DNA of 64,000 nt, from contig VGYB01000003.1 in assembly GCA_016873115.1 (NCBI GenBank), positions 1 through 64,000 on the forward strand, written 5' to 3'. Shown piece by piece: positions 49,785-63,201 of this stretch. The notes below the pieces were generated by a model, which worked only from the letters and a program-made list of their open reading frames with translations, did no database searches and was not told the DNA's origin. Position 1 is the first letter of the stretch, and every line of letters starts with the position of its first letter. Position numbers and translations under genes: made by a program. This stretch comes from Planctomycetota bacterium (GTDB lineage: Bacteria; Planctomycetota; Phycisphaerae; Phycisphaerales; SM1A02).

Positions 49785-51491
49785 TCATTCGCCCGGCTTG
49801 GCCACCGCGGCGGGATCGGCGGGCGGGGTCGCAGGCGGCGTCATGGCTTCGGGCTTGTCGGACGGTTCAGGCTGGCCTGCGCCGGCCGACGCATCACCAC
49901 CACGCGCCTCACGGCTGTCGGCAGCAGGCGGATTGACCACATCAGGTGAGAGTTGGCTCGTGATCTCGTCAGCGCGCGGTTCGCGCAGCAGCACGACATC
50001 ACCGACCGAGAGGCCATCCACGATCTCGGCATCGATCTCGCTCGTGCGGCCCACACGCACGAGCTTCTGCGCGAAGCCGCCGCCATCGGGCACATAGACG
50101 AAGCTCACACGACCCTTCCGGAAGACCGCCTGCACCGGCACGCTGAGTGCCTCACGCACCTCGTCGAGCAGGATCTGCGCCTTGCAGCGCATGCTCGGCT
50201 TGAGAGCAAGGTCCTCGCGCTGCTCGAGCGCCACGCGCACGGTGTAGTCGCGCCGGTTCGGATCGCGCCATCCGCCGCTCTCGGCAAGCACGCTCACCCC
50301 GAGCACATCGCCCGAGATCGGAACGCCCGGCGTTGCATCGCTGAAGACCGTCACACGCTGGCCGGGCTTGATGCGGCCTGAGAGCGCCTCGCTCACCTTG
50401 AGGTTGGCGACCATGGCGCTCGTATCAGGCAGGATCATCACGAGTTCGTTGGGCTTGAGCTCCATGCCAGCCTGCGGTGGCGGCGTCTCGTTGCCGCGGC
50501 CCCATCCGCCCGATTCGAGGCTGCTGGCATAGACGACCAGACCGTCGCTCGGCGCGTTCACGGTGCAGTAGGCGATCTGCTGCTTCGTTTGATCGAGCCG
50601 CTCCTGCGCGGTCTGCTGCTTGAAGTGCGCGCTGTCCAGTTCGGTACGCGCCTTCACCAGCTCGGCATCCTTCTTCTGCTCGGTGCGGCCGCGTTCGGCG
50701 CGGGCCTGGTCGAGGTCGCTCTGCTTCTTGGCCTCATCCTGCGGGTACTGAAACTCGTCGTAGACCTTGATGTCGATTTCGGCCTGCTTGACCTTGGCGT
50801 TGGCCTGGATGAGCGCGACGCGGTCCTTCTCATAGTCGTCACGGCTGATGAACCCCTTCTCGACCAGGCTCTTTGCCTCATCGAAGCGCCTGGCCAGCCG
50901 CTCGGCATCAATGCGGTTGGTCTCGAGCGCGGTCGCCAGTTCCTGGCGCTTCTTGACCACATCACCATTCAGCCAGCCCTGGAGACCAAGCTCTGCCATG
51001 CGCACGGCAACATCGGCCTTGTCGAGTTCGCTCTGCTTCTCCTGTTCCTTGATCGACAGGTTCTGCTCGGCGGCGATGACCTCGCCTTGCGCGGTCTTGA
51101 GTTTGTCCTCGCCATCCTTGAGCTTGGTGATCAGCTCCTCCTCGGCAAGCTTGATGAGGAGATCGCCCGCGGCCACGCGCTTGCCCTCGGGAGCGATCTC
51201 CGTGATGATCGCCCGGCCCTCGAGCTTGTTCCGGATCTCGATCTTGCGCAAGGCCGCCAGTTCCCCGCTCACGGGCAGCACGACATCGAAGCTCCCCTGG
51301 CGTGCCGTGGCCCGATCACCGCCCGGCGACCTGGAGGCGGACACGGACCACCCCGACGAACCCGAGTCATGACCACGACGACCCTTGAGGAGCACACCGG
51401 TGATGGCCAACGAAGCCACCCCGAAGATCACGGCACTCATGATCCGGATCCGTCGCCAAGGCGTGGAGGTTGGGGTCTCGTCGAGGGACAT
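49785..51491 (-). CDS. HlyD/RND-type periplasmic adaptor protein
   Basis: A 568-residue membrane-fusion protein with an N-terminal anchor (about 19-35), a lipoyl half-motif (IRNKLEGRAIITEIAPEGKRV), a very long coiled coil (about 110-320, Glu/Lys/Gln-rich), the second lipoyl half (YCTVNAPSDGLVVYA), a beta-barrel region and a Pro/Ala-rich tail. It links an inner-membrane pump with an outer-membrane channel. The TolC-type gene lies directly upstream with a 36-base gap. No pump gene (ABC or RND) is next to them; the convergent neighbour is the aldehyde dehydrogenase chain. Confidence 0.88.
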   Translation of the reverse strand: MSLDETPTSTPWRRIRIMSAVIFGVASLAITGVLLKGRRGHDSGSSGWSVSASRSPGGDRATARQGSFDVVLPVSGELAALRKIEIRNKLEGRAIITEIAPEGKRVAAGDLLIKLAEEELITKLKDGEDKLKTAQGEVIAAEQNLSIKEQEKQSELDKADVAVRMAELGLQGWLNGDVVKKRQELATALETNRIDAERLARRFDEAKSLVEKGFISRDDYEKDRVALIQANAKVKQAEIDIKVYDEFQYPQDEAKKQSDLDQARAERGRTEQKKDAELVKARTELDSAHFKQQTAQERLDQTKQQIAYCTVNAPSDGLVVYASSLESGGWGRGNETPPPQAGMELKPNELVMILPDTSAMVANLKVSEALSGRIKPGQRVTVFSDATPGVPISGDVLGVSVLAESGGWRDPNRRDYTVRVALEQREDLALKPSMRCKAQILLDEVREALSVPVQAVFRKGRVSFVYVPDGGGFAQKLVRVGRTSEIDAEIVDGLSVGDVVLLREPRADEITSQLSPDVVNPPAADSREARGGDASAGAGQPEPSDKPEAMTPPATPPADPAAVAKPGE

Positions 51492-51527
51492 CGTGGTGCA
51501 GGGTAGGTCGGCGAAATGGGGGATGGT

Positions 51528-53375
51528 TCAGGATTTCGCGGGAGCCGCGACGGGTGCCGTGGATGGCGGCTCTACCGTTGGCGCCGGCGGGGCGGGCACA
51601 TCGTTCACGGGATTGGGCATGAGCTCGGCCGTGCGCAGATAACGGACATCGAGGCCCTTCGGCGGCATCAGGCCCCCATCCTGCGACACGCGCAACTGGC
51701 CGGTCGAATTGAGGTAACCAAGGATCGCCACCTGGAGTTCGCGCCGCGCACGGTCGCGGTCGTTGAGCGCGCGCACGAGCGCATCCACGGTCTCGGTCCG
51801 GTCACGCGGCGTCGCGCGGTCGGGTGCAGCGTCGATCGACTCCTGCCGCTGCTGGGCGATGCTGATGTTGCGCTCCTGCAGCTGCAGCGAGAACAGGCTT
51901 CGCTCGATCGCGCGCGTGGCCTGGCGCACCTGGACGCTGACGGTGTCGCGCGTGTTGAAGAAGGCGCGCTGCACCTGCTCCTGGCGCAGTTGGGCCTGAC
52001 GCAGCGCGATGCGCTCGTCCACCCGGTCCAGCGGGACTTCGATGTTGATGCCGACCGTGTAGTCATCGAACGACCCATCCAGCTGGACGCCGTTGAAGAA
52101 GTCCGGGTCCTGCAGCATGTCGATCTGGGCTGCCAGGTCGACTGCCGGCAGCAGGCCGTTGCGCGCCAGTTCCACCAGGCGCTTCACGTCATCGACCTGG
52201 TCGCGGCTGTTCTGCAGATCAAGCCGAAGGTCGAGCGCCATCTGCACGGCCACTTCGCCATCGATCACCGGCGGCTGCATGTCGAGCAGTTCGGTCTCGA
52301 TCTCAAGCAGCTGGTCGGGCGGCAGGCCGATGCGCACCTTGTAGCGGTCGACCGCGAGCTTGAAGGCTTCCTCCTGCGTGGCCAGGCGATCGACCGCGAA
52401 GAGCGCGTTCTGCTTGGCCAAGTCAGCCTGGAAGGGCACCTGGCGCCCGCTGGCGACAAGCGCATCCTCGCGGTCCACGATCGCCTTGAGTCTCAGGATG
52501 CTCTGCTTGGCGTTGTTGATCTGCAGGCGCTGCACGACGAGGCCCATGTACTCGTCGACCAGGCTCACATAGAACCGGCGGCGGAAATCCTCGAACGCGC
52601 GCGCCGCGTAGATCGTGTTGCGCTGCGCCTGGATGAGCGGCTCCTGCGCCACCAGCCCCGCGCCCTTGAGCAGCGGCAGATCGAGCGCGAAGAACGCCTC
52701 GACGCTGTTCTGGCCGGCGATCGTCGCATCGCTCAGGTCGTCGGCGACCTGGGCAAGGATGTTCGCACTCACCTGGCCGCCGTAGGGCAGCTTCTGCGTC
52801 AGCTCGAACTCGTTGACCAGCTCGAGTGCGAGGGCGTCCGTGACTTCACCGGATGGGTTGAGGATGTCGTTCCCGGTCAGGTCCACCGACTGGAACTGCG
52901 GCGAGATCGTGTCGAAGATCCGTGGTGTCCATTCGTTGGTCTCCAGGAGCAGCGACAGGCACGCGAGCAGGTACTGCTCCTCGGCGTTGCGATACTCGAC
53001 GCTGGCCGTGAACGCCTGCTTGATCGCGCCAGCCAGGTCAAGCTTGACGATGGTGGTGCCGGAGACCGGCGTGGCGGCATCGGCGATCACCTTCTTGGGA
53101 TCGAACGGCGGTCGCTCGCGCACCGTGTAGTTGAGTTCGGACGCCTCGGGGTTCACGGTCGGTGGCGTCCGCAGCTCCGGCGTGTCGTCGTAGGCATTCG
53201 GGTTGCCGTCGGCCTTGCGGTCACGGATCGAGGGAACATTGGCCTTCTCCCCGATCTCGGCGCTCGCCTGCCGGATGCGCTCCTCGGTCTGGCGGTCGAT
53301 CGCCTGCATGCCGGTCTCGCACGCGTTGAGCGCGAGCAGCATGGGGGTGAGGAGGATGGCAGCCAGGTGGCGCAT
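51528..53375 (-). CDS. TolC-family outer-membrane efflux lipoprotein
   Basis: A 615-residue protein with a lipoprotein signal (lipobox LNAC, Cys19). The body carries long helical repeats of the OEP family, for example LLACLSLLLETNEWTP, RDQVDDVKRLVELARNGLLP, ALRQAQLRQEQVQRAFFNTRDTVSVQVRQATRAIERS and QRQESIDAAPDRATPRDRTE read in separate places, typical of the trimeric channel-tunnel. It is longer than E. coli TolC (about 490), with a 100-residue N-terminal segment (about 20-115) of charged sequence. ATG 53375 gives a clean signal; ATG 53393 adds six residues. The gene precedes its adaptor. Confidence 0.87.
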   Translation of the reverse strand: MRHLAAILLTPMLLALNACETGMQAIDRQTEERIRQASAEIGEKANVPSIRDRKADGNPNAYDDTPELRTPPTVNPEASELNYTVRERPPFDPKKVIADAATPVSGTTIVKLDLAGAIKQAFTASVEYRNAEEQYLLACLSLLLETNEWTPRIFDTISPQFQSVDLTGNDILNPSGEVTDALALELVNEFELTQKLPYGGQVSANILAQVADDLSDATIAGQNSVEAFFALDLPLLKGAGLVAQEPLIQAQRNTIYAARAFEDFRRRFYVSLVDEYMGLVVQRLQINNAKQSILRLKAIVDREDALVASGRQVPFQADLAKQNALFAVDRLATQEEAFKLAVDRYKVRIGLPPDQLLEIETELLDMQPPVIDGEVAVQMALDLRLDLQNSRDQVDDVKRLVELARNGLLPAVDLAAQIDMLQDPDFFNGVQLDGSFDDYTVGINIEVPLDRVDERIALRQAQLRQEQVQRAFFNTRDTVSVQVRQATRAIERSLFSLQLQERNISIAQQRQESIDAAPDRATPRDRTETVDALVRALNDRDRARRELQVAILGYLNSTGQLRVSQDGGLMPPKGLDVRYLRTAELMPNPVNDVPAPPAPTVEPPSTAPVAAPAKS

Positions 53376-53517
53376 GGCTTGGTGAACGATCACATCTCCG
53401 CTGCATTCGACCGCAAAGGCCCGTTGGAGCCAAGATCATCGGTTATCACACTCGGTACCGTGCGGGGAGCCGCGGGAATTCCTGACCCGAGCCGCGGACC
53501 GTACCCAAGGAGCGGCC

Positions 53518-54099
53518 ATGAACGACACGGTGAACGAGGACTGCACCGACCTCGATGCCCATCGGGCCGGCGACCGCGAGGCCTTCACACGGCTGGTGGA
53601 TCGCCATGGCGCCGTCACGCTGGCCATCTGCCGCCAGCACACGGCCAGCCTGCCCGATGCCGAGGACGCGTGCCAGGAGACCTTCATCCGTGCCCACCGC
53701 AAGCTCAACCAGGTCCATGACTGCACCGGGTTCCGATCGTGGCTCTACGCGATCGCCAAGCTCGCGTGCAGCGAGCGCCGCCGCAGCGCCGGCCGCCGCG
53801 CGCGCCATGAGGGCGAGGCCATGACCATGCATGCCCAGCGCGATCGAGTCAGGTCCACCACGCCAGGCGAGGACGCGGCCCGTGCCGAGTCACTCGCTCG
53901 CCTTGATCGTGCGCTTGACCACCTGCCCGAGGATGAGCGCCTCGCGATCCACCTCTACTACCTCGAGCCTGATCCCGTGACCGCTGCTCGCAGCGCGCTG
54001 GGCTTGGGCCGAAGCGCCTTCTACAAGCTGCTTGCGCAGGCGCGCGAGCGGCTCGCTGGACTCCTTGAACAACCCGCCATGAATCGAGGCACCCCATGA
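53518..54099 (+). CDS. ECF-type RNA polymerase sigma factor
   Basis: A 193-residue sigma-70 family factor with region 2 (DAEDACQETFIRAHRKLNQV, about 50-70, and FRSWLYAIAKLACSERRR) and region 4 (ALDHLPEDERLAIHLYYLE, then ARSALGLGRSAFYKLLAQARERL). Region 3 is absent, as in the ECF group. An AAGGAG (53507-53512) supports ATG 53518. Its stop overlaps the start of the giant VIT/vWA gene (ATGA 54096), so this sigma factor and that membrane protein are made together; the N-terminal cytosolic part of the latter is the candidate anti-sigma segment. Confidence 0.92.
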   Translation: MNDTVNEDCTDLDAHRAGDREAFTRLVDRHGAVTLAICRQHTASLPDAEDACQETFIRAHRKLNQVHDCTGFRSWLYAIAKLACSERRRSAGRRARHEGEAMTMHAQRDRVRSTTPGEDAARAESLARLDRALDHLPEDERLAIHLYYLEPDPVTAARSALGLGRSAFYKLLAQARERLAGLLEQPAMNRGTP

Positions 54100-57000
54100 T
54101 GTTCCGATCGCTGCTGGCCTTCCCCTTGCGTTCACCCAACGATGACGATGGCGCACCGCCGCGCGATGCGCTCGATGGCCTCCTGCGCGAATGGCATGAC
54201 CGCCATGGCGCCGTGGCGAGCGCCAACCGCGACCGACTGCTTGACGCCGTACGCAAGGATGCGCGCCTGCGGCCGTCGTTCGTGCCCCGCTGGGTACGGC
54301 CGCTCTCGATCGCGGCGTCCCTCGGGCTCATGGTGGTCCTTGGGTTGCTCTTCACGACCGCCATCGATCGCCCCGCGTACGCGGATGGGGTGGTGATGAT
54401 GCCCGAGGCCGGCCGGCTCGATGCGCTTGCCCCCAATGGACAGCTCATCGGCCCCTGCCCCTTGCGTCACACGGATGTGCAGGCGTCGGTGGTGGGTCCG
54501 TTCGCGCGCGTCACACTGCTCCAGCAGTACCAGAACACCTACCCCACCAAGATCGAGGCCGTCTACACCTTCCCGCTCTCGCACCGTGGTGCCGTCGATC
54601 GCATGACCATGACGATCGTGCAGCCTGATGGTGAGCGCGTGGTGGTCGGCGAGGTGCGCGAGCGCTCGATCGCCCGTGCGATGTACGAAGCCGCACGCGA
54701 GCAGGGCTATGTCGCGAGCCTGCTCGAGCAGGAGCGTCCGAACATCTTCACCCAGAGCGTGGCCAACATCGAGCCCGGAGCGCGCGTGGACATCGAGATC
54801 TCGTATGTCGAGACGCTGGTGGCCAAGGATGGTCGCTACGCCTTCGAGTACCCGACCGTCGTGGGACCGCGCTACATCCCCGGCCCGGCGCCCTCGCCAG
54901 GCATGATGCCACCCGGTTGCACGCCGCGCTTGGGCGTGGTGCTGCTTGCGCCAGTCACCGCCGCCGCTGCCGATGGCGAGGTGCCCGCTTGGATGCCCCC
55001 GCTCGCGCAACTCCCCGAAGCACTCGCCGCGGCTCTGCCCATCGCCACACCCGAGGCGATGATCAAGCGCGATGCAGCATCGACCTGCGGCTTCATGGTC
55101 ACCTACGGCAACGGCAGCCAAGAGCGCTGCATGGTCTTCGACGATGGCACGGGTTGGGTGAATGGCCGGTGGTTCTGCCTGCCCAACGCAAGGCCCGGCG
55201 CGCCGTTCGCCCAGCCGACGACGCAGGTCCCCGATGCCGATCGCATCACGCCGATGCCGGTGCTGCCTGGCACACGCGCTGGTCATGACCTTGGCATCTC
55301 GCTGTCGATCGACGCCGGTGGCATCCCGATCACGAGCCTGCGCAGCGCGCTGCATGTCGTTCGCGACCAGGCCGTGACGGAGTCGCGGCGCGTGGTGACC
55401 CTGGCTAAGCAAGCTGAGCTCCCCAACCGCGACTTCATCGTGGAGTGGTCGCTCAAGGACGATGCGATCCTCGAAGCCACCGCTTCGCATTGGTCCACGC
55501 GCACAGCACCCACTGGCATGGGCACAAGTTTCGATCCAGCGAGCGTGCCGGCAGCGATCGAGGGTGGCTACCTCACGCTGGTCGTCTCGCCGCCGGCCGC
55601 GATCGCGCCAACGGAGATCCCCGCGCGCGAACTCGTCTTCGTCCTTGACACCAGCGGCAGCATGCGCGGATTCCCGATCGACAAGGCCAAGCAAGTCATG
55701 TCCAAGGCCATCGCCGCGATGCGCCCGGCCGACACCTTCAATGTGATCACCTTCGCGGGCTCGACGCGGGTGCTTTGGCCGCAGCCCGTTCCGGCAACAC
55801 CAGCCAACATCCAGTCAGCCCAGGCGTTCGTTGATGGCCAGCAGGGTGGCGGCGGCACCGAGATGATGCAGGCGATCAACGCAGCGCTTGTGCAGCGTGC
55901 GGGTGGTGGGCTCACGCCGGCAGAACTCATCGATCTTCCTGCCGATGGTCGCGAGGTTCATGTGCTTGTGCCCTACACGGCCATCGTCGACCAAGGCGGT
56001 CGCCTGCAGATCCAGGCTTCACCCACCGTTGCCTTCCCCTTCACAAGCCCGGTCGAACTGCCGAGCGTGCTCAAGCCCGAGGGCGTCACGCTCTCGATGC
56101 GCGGGCGCTGGGCGACCGTCGGTGGCGAGCGCGTGCTTGAGGTGCGCGAGGCGGGCTTCGCGCCCATGGCCGCCACCTCACCCATGCGCCTGTGCATCTT
56201 CCTGACGGATGGCTACGTCGGCAACGATCGCGGCATCGTCGCTGCGGTGCGGGCGAACGCGGGCACCACGCGGGTCTTCAGCTTCGGCATCGGCAACAGC
56301 GTGAACCGCTGGCTGCTCGATGAGATGGCGCGTGCCGGTCGCGGCGAGAGCGAGTTCGTCACGCTCGAAGCCTCGGCTGACGAGGCGGTCGAGCGGCTCA
56401 CGCGCCGGATCCAGACGCCGGTCCTGGCGGATGTCTCGGTCTCGTTCGAAGGATTCGAAGCGACCGCGACGACGCCTGCCCTGATCCCCGATCTCTTCGA
56501 TGCCAAGCCCATCGTGGCCCATGCGCGCTACCTGAAGCCCGGCAGCGGCACGGTGATTGTGCGCGGCCGCACCGGCGGTGGTCCGTGGGAACGACGCATC
56601 CCCGTGCAGTTGGTCGGGCCCGGCTCGGGCAACGCCTCGGACATGCTGCCCTCGCTCTGGGCGCGCAGCCAGGTCGATGATGCGCTGGCTCCCGTCCTCA
56701 AGGAACTCGAGCAAGGTGCCGTGCCGGCTGATGTGCGCCGCCGCGTCACGAGCCTTGGTGAAGGCTGGCAGGTCATGACGCCCTTCACGAGCTTCATCGC
56801 GATCGAGAAGGCGCGCGTGACGATCGGCGGCCGTGCGCTGCTCGTTCCGGTGCCGATCGAACTGCCGCAGGGCACGCGGTTCGACGGATTCTTCGGCGAG
56901 TGGTGTGGTGGCCCTGTCCCGATGGTCGGGCGCATGAGGGGTGGCCTCCTTGGTTCGGGTGGCGATGATCAGGACATGAGCCTTGGCTTCGCTGCCGAGG

Positions 57001-58199
57001 CTGCACAGAACGCGCAGGGCGTCTCGGTTGCACCACCCGTACCGGCGAGTGCGGCTCCCGCGCCAAGCGCGGCAGCCGATCCCAAGGCAGCACCAGCACC
57101 AATGGTTGCGTCGAGTGCACCCCCAGTCGGAGTTGTCGAAGCACGCAAGGAGTCCGCATCGCGCGGCTTGCGCCGGGGCAGTGGTGACGCGGGACGCGCT
57201 GGCACCGGTCACCCTGGCGGCGGTGGTGGCGGGTCGCAGGGCCAAGGTGCAGCTGGTGGATTCGGCGGCGACTCCAAGGGCAAGATGGAGTCGATGGCTT
57301 CCCGCCCAGCCAAGCCTGGGGCGCCTGCCGAGGTTCAGCAGCCTGAACGGAAGGGCCAATCGGCAGGTGGTGGGATGCCTCCCGCCGGCACGGCAGCCGA
57401 CCGCGCCGGGCGCAACGAAGCGGATTCGCTGGAGCGCTCGACGGGTCGAGGAATCGACGCCAAGCGGGATGCGGCAGTCGATGCAACGCGAGATGCGCCA
57501 ACCCGGGCTCGCGATGGATCCAATGATGGCGAACCTCCGGCGGAGCCCGCGGCACCGGTCGCACCAGCCGAAGATCCAGTCATCGTGCTCCATGATGTGC
57601 GTGATCTGGTTGGCCTTGGTGCCGAGCCAGCCGTCGTCGCGCAGGCGACCGAGCGCTTGGTGCGCGAGCTGCAGAGGTTCACGGGTCGTGAGCTCTGGAC
57701 GGATCAGGGTGGGCGCAGCGCGGCGTGGTCGGCGCAGGATGGCCTTCTCAGGATCGAAGCCTGGCCGAGCCTGCAGCGCATGATCGACGGCGCCCTGCGC
57801 ACGCGCCGAGCGGCGATGGGCGCAACCGGCGGAATCGACCGCGACCTCGTGCGCGCCGATGAGGGTGCAGCGATCACGGCCATGCGTGCGCGTGTCGCGC
57901 GTCCGCTCACCACGGTCGAACTCGCCCGGGCGTGGGACCTGCTTGGCACCGACCTCATCCGCGCTGCACTCCTTGGCACACCGCCCGCGGGGACTTTGGG
58001 CACCATGGAGGATGGCTCGGTCTGGGTCTCGATCAGTGTGACCGAGAACAATGCACTTGGAAGGCTGGCGTCGGGGCTTGTGGAGCCCGGCATCAACGCT
58101 GCGGCGCGCGTGGTGGTTGGTCGTGTGCAGCCGGTGCGCCTTGTCGAGCTTGTGCAGGACCCCGGCGTTGCCGCGGTCAACACGATCCCGGCACCGTGA
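54096..58199 (+). CDS. Giant VIT/von Willebrand A membrane protein linked to an ECF sigma factor
   Basis: A 1,367-residue protein. A short cytosolic N-terminus (about 1-68) and one membrane helix (about 70-90) precede a VIT domain (about 105-235, FARVTLLQQYQNTYPTKIEAVYTFPL and VGEVRERSIARAMYEAAREQG) and a vWA domain with intact MIDAS LDTSGSM (about 515-521). The vWA body contains a long insert (about 600-690) before the TDGYVGND strand. A Gly/Ala/Gln-rich disordered stretch (about 990-1140) leads to a C-terminal segment where HDVRDLVGLGAEP resembles a motif repeated in planctomycete proteins with zf-HC2 or sigma-linked domains. Role: surface sensing with the sigma factor, by inference. Confidence 0.8.
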   Translation: MMFRSLLAFPLRSPNDDDGAPPRDALDGLLREWHDRHGAVASANRDRLLDAVRKDARLRPSFVPRWVRPLSIAASLGLMVVLGLLFTTAIDRPAYADGVVMMPEAGRLDALAPNGQLIGPCPLRHTDVQASVVGPFARVTLLQQYQNTYPTKIEAVYTFPLSHRGAVDRMTMTIVQPDGERVVVGEVRERSIARAMYEAAREQGYVASLLEQERPNIFTQSVANIEPGARVDIEISYVETLVAKDGRYAFEYPTVVGPRYIPGPAPSPGMMPPGCTPRLGVVLLAPVTAAAADGEVPAWMPPLAQLPEALAAALPIATPEAMIKRDAASTCGFMVTYGNGSQERCMVFDDGTGWVNGRWFCLPNARPGAPFAQPTTQVPDADRITPMPVLPGTRAGHDLGISLSIDAGGIPITSLRSALHVVRDQAVTESRRVVTLAKQAELPNRDFIVEWSLKDDAILEATASHWSTRTAPTGMGTSFDPASVPAAIEGGYLTLVVSPPAAIAPTEIPARELVFVLDTSGSMRGFPIDKAKQVMSKAIAAMRPADTFNVITFAGSTRVLWPQPVPATPANIQSAQAFVDGQQGGGGTEMMQAINAALVQRAGGGLTPAELIDLPADGREVHVLVPYTAIVDQGGRLQIQASPTVAFPFTSPVELPSVLKPEGVTLSMRGRWATVGGERVLEVREAGFAPMAATSPMRLCIFLTDGYVGNDRGIVAAVRANAGTTRVFSFGIGNSVNRWLLDEMARAGRGESEFVTLEASADEAVERLTRRIQTPVLADVSVSFEGFEATATTPALIPDLFDAKPIVAHARYLKPGSGTVIVRGRTGGGPWERRIPVQLVGPGSGNASDMLPSLWARSQVDDALAPVLKELEQGAVPADVRRRVTSLGEGWQVMTPFTSFIAIEKARVTIGGRALLVPVPIELPQGTRFDGFFGEWCGGPVPMVGRMRGGLLGSGGDDQDMSLGFAAEAAQNAQGVSVAPPVPASAAPAPSAAADPKAAPAPMVASSAPPVGVVEARKESASRGLRRGSGDAGRAGTGHPGGGGGGSQGQGAAGGFGGDSKGKMESMASRPAKPGAPAEVQQPERKGQSAGGGMPPAGTAADRAGRNEADSLERSTGRGIDAKRDAAVDATRDAPTRARDGSNDGEPPAEPAAPVAPAEDPVIVLHDVRDLVGLGAEPAVVAQATERLVRELQRFTGRELWTDQGGRSAAWSAQDGLLRIEAWPSLQRMIDGALRTRRAAMGATGGIDRDLVRADEGAAITAMRARVARPLTTVELARAWDLLGTDLIRAALLGTPPAGTLGTMEDGSVWVSISVTENNALGRLASGLVEPGINAAARVVVGRVQPVRLVELVQDPGVAAVNTIPAP

Positions 58200-61848: not shown

Positions 61849-63201
61849 TCAATTATTGCCCCACTGCGAGAGCAGAAGCGAGAGATCGTTTCCGTCGACG
61901 CTGCCATCGCCATTGACATCGGCGTCGGGCGGAGCCGGAATGCACGCGATGGTCAGTAAGCCCGGACTAGAGACCGGGCTCTGCGAACTGTTGTTGTACT
62001 TCAGCGGTCCGTAGGCGATGAAGTAGGTCTCGGACGAATCAGTGTTGAAGGTGAGTACACCTTCCATGCCGCTGCCGTTGTCGCTGCACGCGATCGGATG
62101 CAAGTGCCCGCACGATCCCGTGTAGACGAGGAACCCGTACCTCGCCGACTGTCCCGTCGACGGCTGGACCTTGACGGTCGTCGAACCGGTGCACGCGTCG
62201 AGTTGGAACCACGTCGGGGTGCGAATTACTGCAGCAACGCCACAGATGTTGTCCAGTCCGATGTTGTTGTTGCTGCCTTCGGTAGCGGTCTCGACGGTGC
62301 TGAACGAGTAGGTGCCGCTCCCCAGCACCGGAGCGTCATCGCACGCCGCAGGGCGCGAGAGCCAGACACCCCCGATGATGTTGATCGTGTAGGTGCCTGT
62401 GGCAGTGTCCGAGGGTCCGCAGTCACCACCGTCGTTGCAGTACTGATCGCAGTTCAAGAAGATCGGGATGCCGTTCCAGGAGTAAGTCCCATTGTCGCAC
62501 GCACCGTCGCCGACCCAAGTTGCGGGGCAGCAATTGCCGTTGCAGTCGCGGATCAGGCCCGCAGGGCAGTTCCCCTGAACGCTGTTCCCGTCGCAGATCC
62601 AGTCGCAGAGCTCGCCGGAGCTCACCGGAGTGAGGGTCTGCGTGGCATTGTCCGAGGTGAAATTGAACAGCTCAAAGGGAGCCTCAGCACGCGGACACGT
62701 CGTGGGGACGGAGTTGCCGGTGACCGCGAGGTAGTACGCGCCAGCTGTGAGCCCGGGAATGCCCCCGCCTGTCACGGAGACATTGTGGAGACGAGACCAC
62801 GTGACGTTCGATGCCTTGTTGTTGTTCGCAGCCAACGGAATCGCACCGAGGCTCCCATCAGGTTTGACGACCTTCTTGAACAGGAAGAGTCGAGTGTCGA
62901 AGGACGAGCCCTGTGTGTTCACGTCGAACGCTTGAGCATTGGAAATGAAGATCTCGTAGAGGTCGATCGAGTCTGGAAGCGCGGCAACAAGGGACGTGGT
63001 GCCGGTCTGGCCTTCGATGAGCGTGAGCGCACCGCCTCCTGAGTCGCTCGCGGCGACGGACTTGATCCGGCTGGCGGTCTCTGCACTCGCGCCGGCCTTG
63101 TCACCGCCTCCCTCGCACCAGATTGGGCCGGCAAGGCCGCCATCGTCAGCGAACGCAGGAAGGACGCAGAGCATCGGGACGAGCAGGGCAACACAACGCA
63201 T
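61849..63201 (-). CDS. Secreted protein with LNR-like Cys segment and dockerin-like repeat
   Basis: A 450-residue protein with a signal peptide (MRCVALLVPMLCVLPAFA). Two beta-sandwich-like regions flank a Cys-rich segment (about 205-275: CDWICDG, NCCPATWVGDGACDNG, CDQYCNDGGDCG) that resembles a Lin-12/Notch repeat. The C-terminus carries one EF-hand-type dockerin-like loop, DADVNGDGSVDGNDLSLLLSQWG. ATG 63201 is preceded by GGAGGT, the best ribosome site in the window. The sequence is richer in A/T and in Asn/Thr codons than its neighbours, which may reflect relaxed selection or transfer. Surface adhesion or matrix binding is inferred. Confidence 0.8.
   Translation of the reverse strand: MRCVALLVPMLCVLPAFADDGGLAGPIWCEGGGDKAGASAETASRIKSVAASDSGGGALTLIEGQTGTTSLVAALPDSIDLYEIFISNAQAFDVNTQGSSFDTRLFLFKKVVKPDGSLGAIPLAANNNKASNVTWSRLHNVSVTGGGIPGLTAGAYYLAVTGNSVPTTCPRAEAPFELFNFTSDNATQTLTPVSSGELCDWICDGNSVQGNCPAGLIRDCNGNCCPATWVGDGACDNGTYSWNGIPIFLNCDQYCNDGGDCGPSDTATGTYTINIIGGVWLSRPAACDDAPVLGSGTYSFSTVETATEGSNNNIGLDNICGVAAVIRTPTWFQLDACTGSTTVKVQPSTGQSARYGFLVYTGSCGHLHPIACSDNGSGMEGVLTFNTDSSETYFIAYGPLKYNNSSQSPVSSPGLLTIACIPAPPDADVNGDGSVDGNDLSLLLSQWGNN

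What the first reader, a model, noticed from the sequence alone, without database searches (positions are those of the whole stretch)
53518..58199. ECF sigma factor co-translated with a giant VIT/vWA surface protein
Seen: the sigma-factor stop overlaps the start of a 1,367-residue protein that has a 68-residue cytosolic N-terminus, one membrane helix, VIT and vWA (intact MIDAS) domains, and a C-terminal DVRDL segment. Classical ECF sigma factors are paired with anti-sigma proteins; here no zf-HC2-type anti-sigma gene is present. Inference: the N-terminal segment acts as anti-sigma and the vWA part senses an extracellular ligand or mechanical state, a one-protein receptor and anti-sigma.
Basis: partly seen in the sequence, partly recalled or inferred. 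Interest (0 to 1): 0.7.

Follow-up and report, generated by a model that had tools for sequence, protein, structure and literature searches.

The report
Sigma factor paired with membrane sensor
In Phycisphaerae bacteria one gene pair encodes a gene-switching protein (an ECF sigma factor) and a large membrane protein that probably holds it silent with a short inner tail until its outer part, which resembles an animal plasma protein, senses something; the pair is always found together, but binding has not been tested.

Summary
An ECF sigma gene (53518-54099) shares ATGA with a 1,367-residue protein (54096-58199): 66-residue tail, one membrane helix, VIT, vWA with intact MIDAS, C-terminal DVRDL. 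The genome has no zf-HC2 match. The pair is a conserved unit: of 49 pairs from about 17 genera, 46 keep the 4-bp overlap. This sigma type occurs once per genome in 58 of 181 family genomes; 55 copies sit directly before a long VIT/vWA gene, the other three are on broken contigs or not resolved.

The conserved part of the tail is a 27-residue helix (residues 26-52, LDxLLRxWHxxxxxxAxxxRDxLL), as conserved as the sigma factor, flanked by variable stretches, unique in the genome, and without a Pfam or PDB relative. A sister clade has the same logic as separate genes: another ECF, a tail-plus-membrane-helix protein, a VIT/vWA protein. A conserved xAA at the inner end of the membrane helix resembles the RseA/RsgI degradation site.

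Best explanation: a one-protein receptor and anti-sigma, built like RsgI but with an unrelated tail and an inter-alpha-inhibitor-heavy-chain-like sensor. Sigma binding, inhibition and ligand are untested. New variant of a known kind.

The parts
53518..54099 (+). ECF sigma factor, 193 aa; a subfamily found once per genome
   Evidence: Pfam Sigma70_r2 4.5e-12, TIGR02937 above cut-off; A6 profile 292.7 bits, one match per genome
54096..54099 (+). ATGA overlap of sigma stop and receptor start (translational coupling inferred)
   Evidence: same overlap in 46 of 49 pairs
54096..58199 (+). 1367-aa membrane protein: tail, TM helix, VIT, vWA, low-complexity linker, C-terminal segment
54171..54251 (+). 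Tail island, residues 26-52 (LDGLLREWHDRHGAVASANRDRLLDAV), proposed sigma-binding helix
   Evidence: invariant D, L, W, H, A in 48 unique islands; helical periodicity of conservation p=0.013; only significant match in the genome, E=6.8e-15
54294..54365 (+). Single transmembrane helix, about residues 67-90, with xAA at its cytosolic end (IAAS)
   Evidence: hydropathy, AF2 helix 67-87, AA near the start in 24 of 25 helices
54462..54806 (+). VIT domain, residues 123-237
   Evidence: Pfam PF08487 E=5.4e-30; the only VIT match in the genome
55629..56420 (+). vWA domain, about residues 512-775, MIDAS D518/S520/S522, T588, D705
   Evidence: Pfam, alignment A3, positions
55905..56165 (+). Beta-rich insert of about 87 residues inside the vWA, between the T588 helix and the D705 strand
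   Evidence: AF2 model, block pLDDT mostly 62-82
57573..58196 (+). C-terminal segment (residues 1160-1367) with DVRDL at 57594-57608
   Evidence: seen in the window's close relatives, not in the three more distant loci aligned; AF2 pLDDT 71.5, no significant PDB match
53404..53450 (.). Conserved block between the divergent TolC and sigma genes; candidate promoter region, function unassigned
   Evidence: alignment of the window and four close relatives; motif not found upstream of the distant relatives
51528..53393 (-). TolC-like outer-membrane efflux protein, divergent neighbour; TolC and/or HlyD lie beside the pair in 8 genera
   Evidence: Pfam OEP 3.7e-13
49785..51491 (-). HlyD-type adaptor protein next to TolC
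   Evidence: Pfam HlyD_D23 9.4e-9

Best explanation
The two genes form one signalling unit. The large protein is a receptor and an anti-sigma factor in one chain. In the resting state its cytosolic tail, through the amphipathic helix at residues 26-52, holds the ECF sigma at the membrane away from RNA polymerase (inferred). The extracytoplasmic part, an inter-alpha-inhibitor-heavy-chain-like VIT/vWA body with an intact metal site, receives the signal (inferred; ligand unknown). Release most likely goes by regulated proteolysis: loss or cleavage of the outer part, a cut by an M50 protease in the membrane, and removal of the tail by a ClpXP-type protease at the conserved xAA (inferred by analogy with RseA and RsgI). 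Shown here: gene coupling, one-to-one co-occurrence, the conserved island, topology by hydropathy and charge, MIDAS residues, xAA, and a sister clade with separate genes.
For: ATGA overlap in 46 of 49 pairs, the other 3 within 12 nt. Sigma subfamily present once in each of 58 of 181 genomes, 55 adjacent to a long VIT/vWA gene. Long VIT/vWA genomes without a sigma hit have contigs that end beside the gene, except G067, which belongs to the separate-gene clade. Island: 50% mean pairwise identity, equal to the sigma (50%) and near the VIT-vWA core (53%), against 10-20% for the linker and 27-30% for the TM helix; helical periodicity; AF2 helix 26-56 (low confidence); unique in the genome; in 9 of 9 matches outside the family the sigma lies directly upstream. 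No zf-HC2 match in the genome. Sister clade: ECF, then tail+TM protein, then VIT/vWA; tree long 100/100, separate 100/99, joined 92/80. xAA in 24 of 25 helices, shuffled mean 7.2; M50 proteases in the genome. Foldseek: inter-alpha-inhibitor heavy chain 1, E=5.8e-30 over 813 columns. Architecture precedent: RsgI (PMC12203970).
Against: No binding or inhibition evidence. The tail has no detectable similarity to any anti-sigma of known structure or to a Pfam family. Distance correlation sigma-island is weak (0.35; sigma-VIT/vWA 0.65). The AF2 model is poor (pLDDT 51.6). Co-occurrence would also follow from any obligate partnership, not only inhibition. In L138 sigma and tail remain while the VIT/vWA gene is missing downstream, a rearrangement or assembly fault that was not resolved. 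Joint support of the two ECF-linked clades is only 92/80 and the tree is flagged for long branches. AA near the start of a membrane helix could be a packing preference.
Confidence: 0.74

Rival explanations
1. The tail helix binds the sigma but is mainly an activator or pro-sigma chaperone, as in FecR-type regulators, so deleting the receptor gene abolishes rather than unleashes sigma activity.
For: Same gene coupling and one-to-one co-occurrence; the tail is short and not of class I type. FecR-type positive action is from general knowledge.
Against: The neighbouring HlyD/TolC genes are not a TonB receptor of the FecA kind; nothing here separates activator from inhibitor directly.
Confidence: 0.12
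2. The tail does not touch the sigma. The sigma merely drives expression of its own operon, and the tail island binds another cytosolic partner such as a protease or an envelope-building enzyme.
For: Anti-sigma function was not measured; the island has no relative among known anti-sigma domains; a conserved upstream block could be an autoregulated promoter in the close relatives.
Against: No sigma of this type was shown to occur without the long protein; the separate-gene cassettes put a tail+TM protein directly after the ECF; the overlap is typical of stoichiometric partners.
Confidence: 0.12
3. The tail is an anti-sigma, but the VIT/vWA body is not a ligand sensor: it is an adhesive or matrix protein that works outside, and the signal is envelope stress or export status, for example of the neighbouring TolC/HlyD system.
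For: VIT/vWA fold matches a secreted matrix-associated protein; TolC/HlyD genes beside the pair in 8 genera, with the orientation changed in the window's genus.
Against: Many genera with the pair lack TolC/HlyD beside it; MIDAS and VIT are kept while the C terminus drifts.
Confidence: 0.25

Closest known systems
SigI/RsgI of Clostridium thermocellum and Bacilli
   Same: Sigma factor plus a single-pass protein with a short cytosolic anti-sigma domain, TM helix and large extracellular sensor in one chain; xAA sites in the TM helix used by ClpXP (PMC12203970)
   Different: SigI is a different sigma type; no RsgI family was matched; the sensor is VIT/vWA, not a carbohydrate-binding module
Class I anti-sigma factors (RseA, RsiW, RskA, ChrR)
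   Same: Encoded with an ECF; often membrane-bound with a cytosolic N-terminal domain; RseP/ClpXP-type release suggested by xAA
   Different: Class I domain averages about 101 residues with four helices (PMC7406223); here one conserved helix in a 66-residue tail, no zinc motif, no sequence match
Class II anti-sigma CnrY (CnrH-CnrY)
   Same: Short cytosolic tail of few helices (PMC7406223)
   Different: No sequence match found; CnrY has two helices
Inter-alpha-inhibitor heavy chain 1 (6FPY)
   Same: VIT-vWA body, Foldseek E=5.8e-30 over 813 columns
   Different: 13-14% identity; here membrane-anchored with a cytosolic tail and with a beta-rich insert in the vWA
TIGR03788 marine proteobacterial sortase target protein
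   Same: VIT and vWA organisation, 426.8 bits
   Different: Below the curated cut-off of 551.65; long tail and ECF partner
Separate-gene ECF / tail+TM protein / VIT-vWA cassettes (L106-L109 and others)
   Same: ECF-linked VIT/vWA in the same bacterial family; sister clade in the tree
   Different: Different ECF type, anti-sigma-like protein on its own gene, with a dockerin in the four tested, VIT/vWA with an apparent lipoprotein signal in several

Membership tests
ECF sigma factors | Sigma-70 regions 2 and 4, small size | tested here: met
   PF04542 4.5e-12 above cut-off; PF08281 matched below its cut-off; TIGR02937 72.1 against 42.9 bits
ECF-associated anti-sigma factor (functional class) | Encoded directly with the sigma, in fixed partnership | tested here: met
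   46 of 49 ATGA overlaps; 55 of 58 sigma copies adjacent, none shown to be an orphan
ECF-associated anti-sigma factor (functional class) | Binds and inhibits the sigma | not testable with these tools
   Only single chains could be folded; no wet experiment
Class I anti-sigma domain (ASDI) | About 100-residue four-helix domain, in about half of cases with Hx3Cx2C zinc motif | tested here: not met
   27-residue conserved helix; no zf-HC2 in the genome; no Pfam or PDB match
Class II anti-sigma (CnrY) | Short two-helix cytosolic domain homologous to CnrY | tested here: inconclusive
   Short tail fits; profile search of the PDB did not list CnrY, but CnrY-like domains are too divergent for this to exclude
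RsgI family | RsgI N-terminal domain and SigI partner | tested here: not met
   No RsgI family among Pfam matches; the partner is an ECF
RseA/RsgI-like proteolytic release | xAA at the cytosolic end of the TM helix and an M50 protease in the genome | tested here: met
   24 of 25 helices; M50 in the genome
RseA/RsgI-like proteolytic release | Actual cleavage and degradation of the tail | not testable with these tools
   needs experiment
Inter-alpha-inhibitor heavy chain-like VIT/vWA proteins | VIT followed by vWA with MIDAS in one body | tested here: met
   Pfam, MIDAS residues, Foldseek 6FPY
TIGR03788 sortase target proteins | Score above the curated cut-off | tested here: not met
   426.8 against 551.65 bits

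The most novel reading that the evidence does not exclude
A new class of anti-sigma domain, a single conserved helix (LDxLLRxWHxxxxxxAxxxRDxLL), arose in Phycisphaerae when a separate anti-sigma membrane protein merged with an inter-alpha-inhibitor-like VIT/vWA protein, giving a receptor whose MIDAS-dependent ligand binding or mechanical state sets gene expression directly.
Probability: 0.35. Interest if true: 0.8.

Novelty: new variant of a known kind. Interest (0 to 1): 0.62.

Why it matters
Planctomycetes encode many ECF sigma factors whose controllers are unknown. This links one ECF type to a specific membrane receptor through a short tail motif that can be searched for and mutated, and it suggests a role for the bacterial relatives of an animal plasma protein, the inter-alpha-inhibitor heavy chains, which have been reported in planctomycetes (PMC6906331) without a function that I found. 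The separate-gene cassettes in the same family give a natural comparison for testing how one-protein receptors arise.

Tried and rejected
Sequence search of the tail profile against the PDB and Pfam: nothing relevant. Fold search of the C terminus: no significant match. Distance correlation sigma-island: 0.35, inconclusive with 27 residues and 17 sequences. Promoter motif shared with distant relatives: not found. Direct coupling analysis was not attempted: far too few pairs. Complex modelling of sigma with tail: the structure tool folds single chains of this window and of certain loci; the overlap puts the two genes in different frames, and no artificial fusion was made. A profile of the tail across the phylum gave no match outside the family in 392 genomes, while the class sample gave 9 genomes outside the family. 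Paper searches found no description of an ECF/VIT-vWA pair; the main ECF reclassification paper (10.1093/nar/gkaa1229) is not held, so prior notice there cannot be excluded. Several genome-search runs failed because the machine gave no answer; the same question was answered later.

Full report
1. Observation. Pfam and NCBIfam identify an ECF sigma factor, a VIT domain and a vWA domain. The MIDAS residues D518, S520, S522, T588 and D705 are present, DVRDL is at residues 1167-1171, and there is one hydrophobic segment, about residues 67-90. Positive charge before the helix exceeds that after it in 43 of 50 proteins, which puts the tail in the cytosol. The six flanking proteins tested carry no anti-sigma domain, and the 96% complete genome has no zf-HC2 match, twelve matches to sigma-70 region 2 and one VIT protein.

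2. The pair is a unit. Fourteen loci came from public genomes, with the overlap kept down to 48% identity and with different upstream genes. In the bacterial family, 181 genomes were searched for VIT and 80 regions fetched. Of 49 pairs from about 17 genera, 46 have the ATGA overlap and three lie within 12 nt. In the reverse direction, a profile of the sigma subfamily found exactly one copy in 58 of 181 genomes and no weaker hit down to E 1e-30. Fifty-five copies sit before a long VIT/vWA gene. Of the other three, the tail of G133 starts on the sigma's contig and ends with it; G042's sigma lies 441 nt from a contig end; in G051 the two genes are on different contigs and the VIT ORF runs off its contig. 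These three were not resolved further. Genomes with a long VIT/vWA gene but no sigma hit have contigs that end beside it, apart from G067, which belongs to the separate-gene clade. These are mostly metagenome-assembled genomes.

3. The tail. Across the pairs the leader varies from 14 to 76 residues and the linker to the membrane from 7 to 49, while a 27-residue island is fixed. D, L, W, H and A are invariant in 48 unique islands. Its mean pairwise identity equals that of the sigma and is near that of the VIT-vWA core, while linker, TM helix and C terminus are far more divergent. Conservation repeats at about 100 degrees (p=0.013), and the AF2 model, poor overall, gives one helix at 26-56. The island occurs once in the genome at E=6.8e-15, the next match being 0.55. 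In the class it is found in three further families, each time with the sigma directly upstream; in the phylum sample there was no match outside the family. It resembles no Pfam or PDB family.

4. The outer part. Foldseek matches the model of residues 1-990 to inter-alpha-inhibitor heavy chain 1 (6FPY) at E=5.8e-30 over 813 columns. The vWA carries a beta-rich insert of about 87 residues. The C terminus (residues 1160-1367) is predicted with moderate confidence and matches nothing significantly.

5. Separate-gene relatives. Short VIT/vWA genes that score 210-362 against the window's protein follow a different ECF and a tail-plus-membrane-helix protein. In the four cases tested by Pfam from L106-L109 that middle protein carries a type I dockerin; a further secreted protein, cohesin-like by my reading only, lies between it and the VIT/vWA gene. 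L084 (with L196) has an ECF further upstream with another gene in between. Other short VIT/vWA proteins score 57-147. In the tree the long form is one clade (100/100), the separate form another (100/99), and they join with 92/80. The simplest reading is that ECF linkage is older and that the long form merges the anti-sigma membrane protein with the VIT/vWA protein; the direction is inferred.

6. Mechanism. The membrane helix has AA near its cytosolic end in 24 of 25 representatives, against 7.2 in shuffles, and the nine middle-protein helices I picked out by eye have it too. RsgI is cut in the membrane by RseP and its stub is recognised by ClpXP at xAA (PMC12203970); the same holds for RseA (general knowledge). 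M50 proteases are present in the genome. I infer sequestration by the tail and release by regulated proteolysis after a signal at the VIT/vWA body. The first protease and the signal are unknown.

7. Context. HlyD and/or TolC genes lie beside the pair in eight genera, divergent in the window's genus and co-directional elsewhere. Many genera with the pair lack them, so this is a lead on function, not a part of the system.

8. Comparison and verdict. It works like RsgI, but is not an RsgI or a class I anti-sigma by the features tested. It is a new variant of a known kind: a one-protein receptor and anti-sigma. What is missing is any direct evidence of contact between tail and sigma.

Noticed in passing
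L106-L109, L188, L190-L192, L194: Cassettes of ECF sigma, tail+TM protein (type I dockerin by Pfam in the four tested, L106-L109), cohesin-like secreted protein (my reading, no Pfam match) and short VIT/vWA protein; in L101, L105, L195 the middle protein is longer and had no Pfam match in the two tested (L101, L105).
   Followed up: partly
window 49785-53393 and L160-L166: TolC and HlyD genes beside the sigma/VIT pair in eight genera, in two orientations.
   Followed up: partly
window 55905-56165: Beta-rich insert inside the vWA domain between the T588 helix and the D705 strand.
   Followed up: no
L138:3512-3878: Sigma and tail island followed by nonsense sequence instead of VIT/vWA; rearrangement or assembly fault.
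   Followed up: partly
window 61849-63201: Secreted protein on the minus strand ending in DVNGDGSVDGNDLSLLLSQWGNN, which looks like a calcium-binding dockerin-type end; no Pfam match.
   Followed up: no
L050, L051, L056: In genera g13 and g14 sigma and receptor are in the same frame, separated by the sigma stop codon and a further 3 to 12 nt before the receptor start.
   Followed up: no
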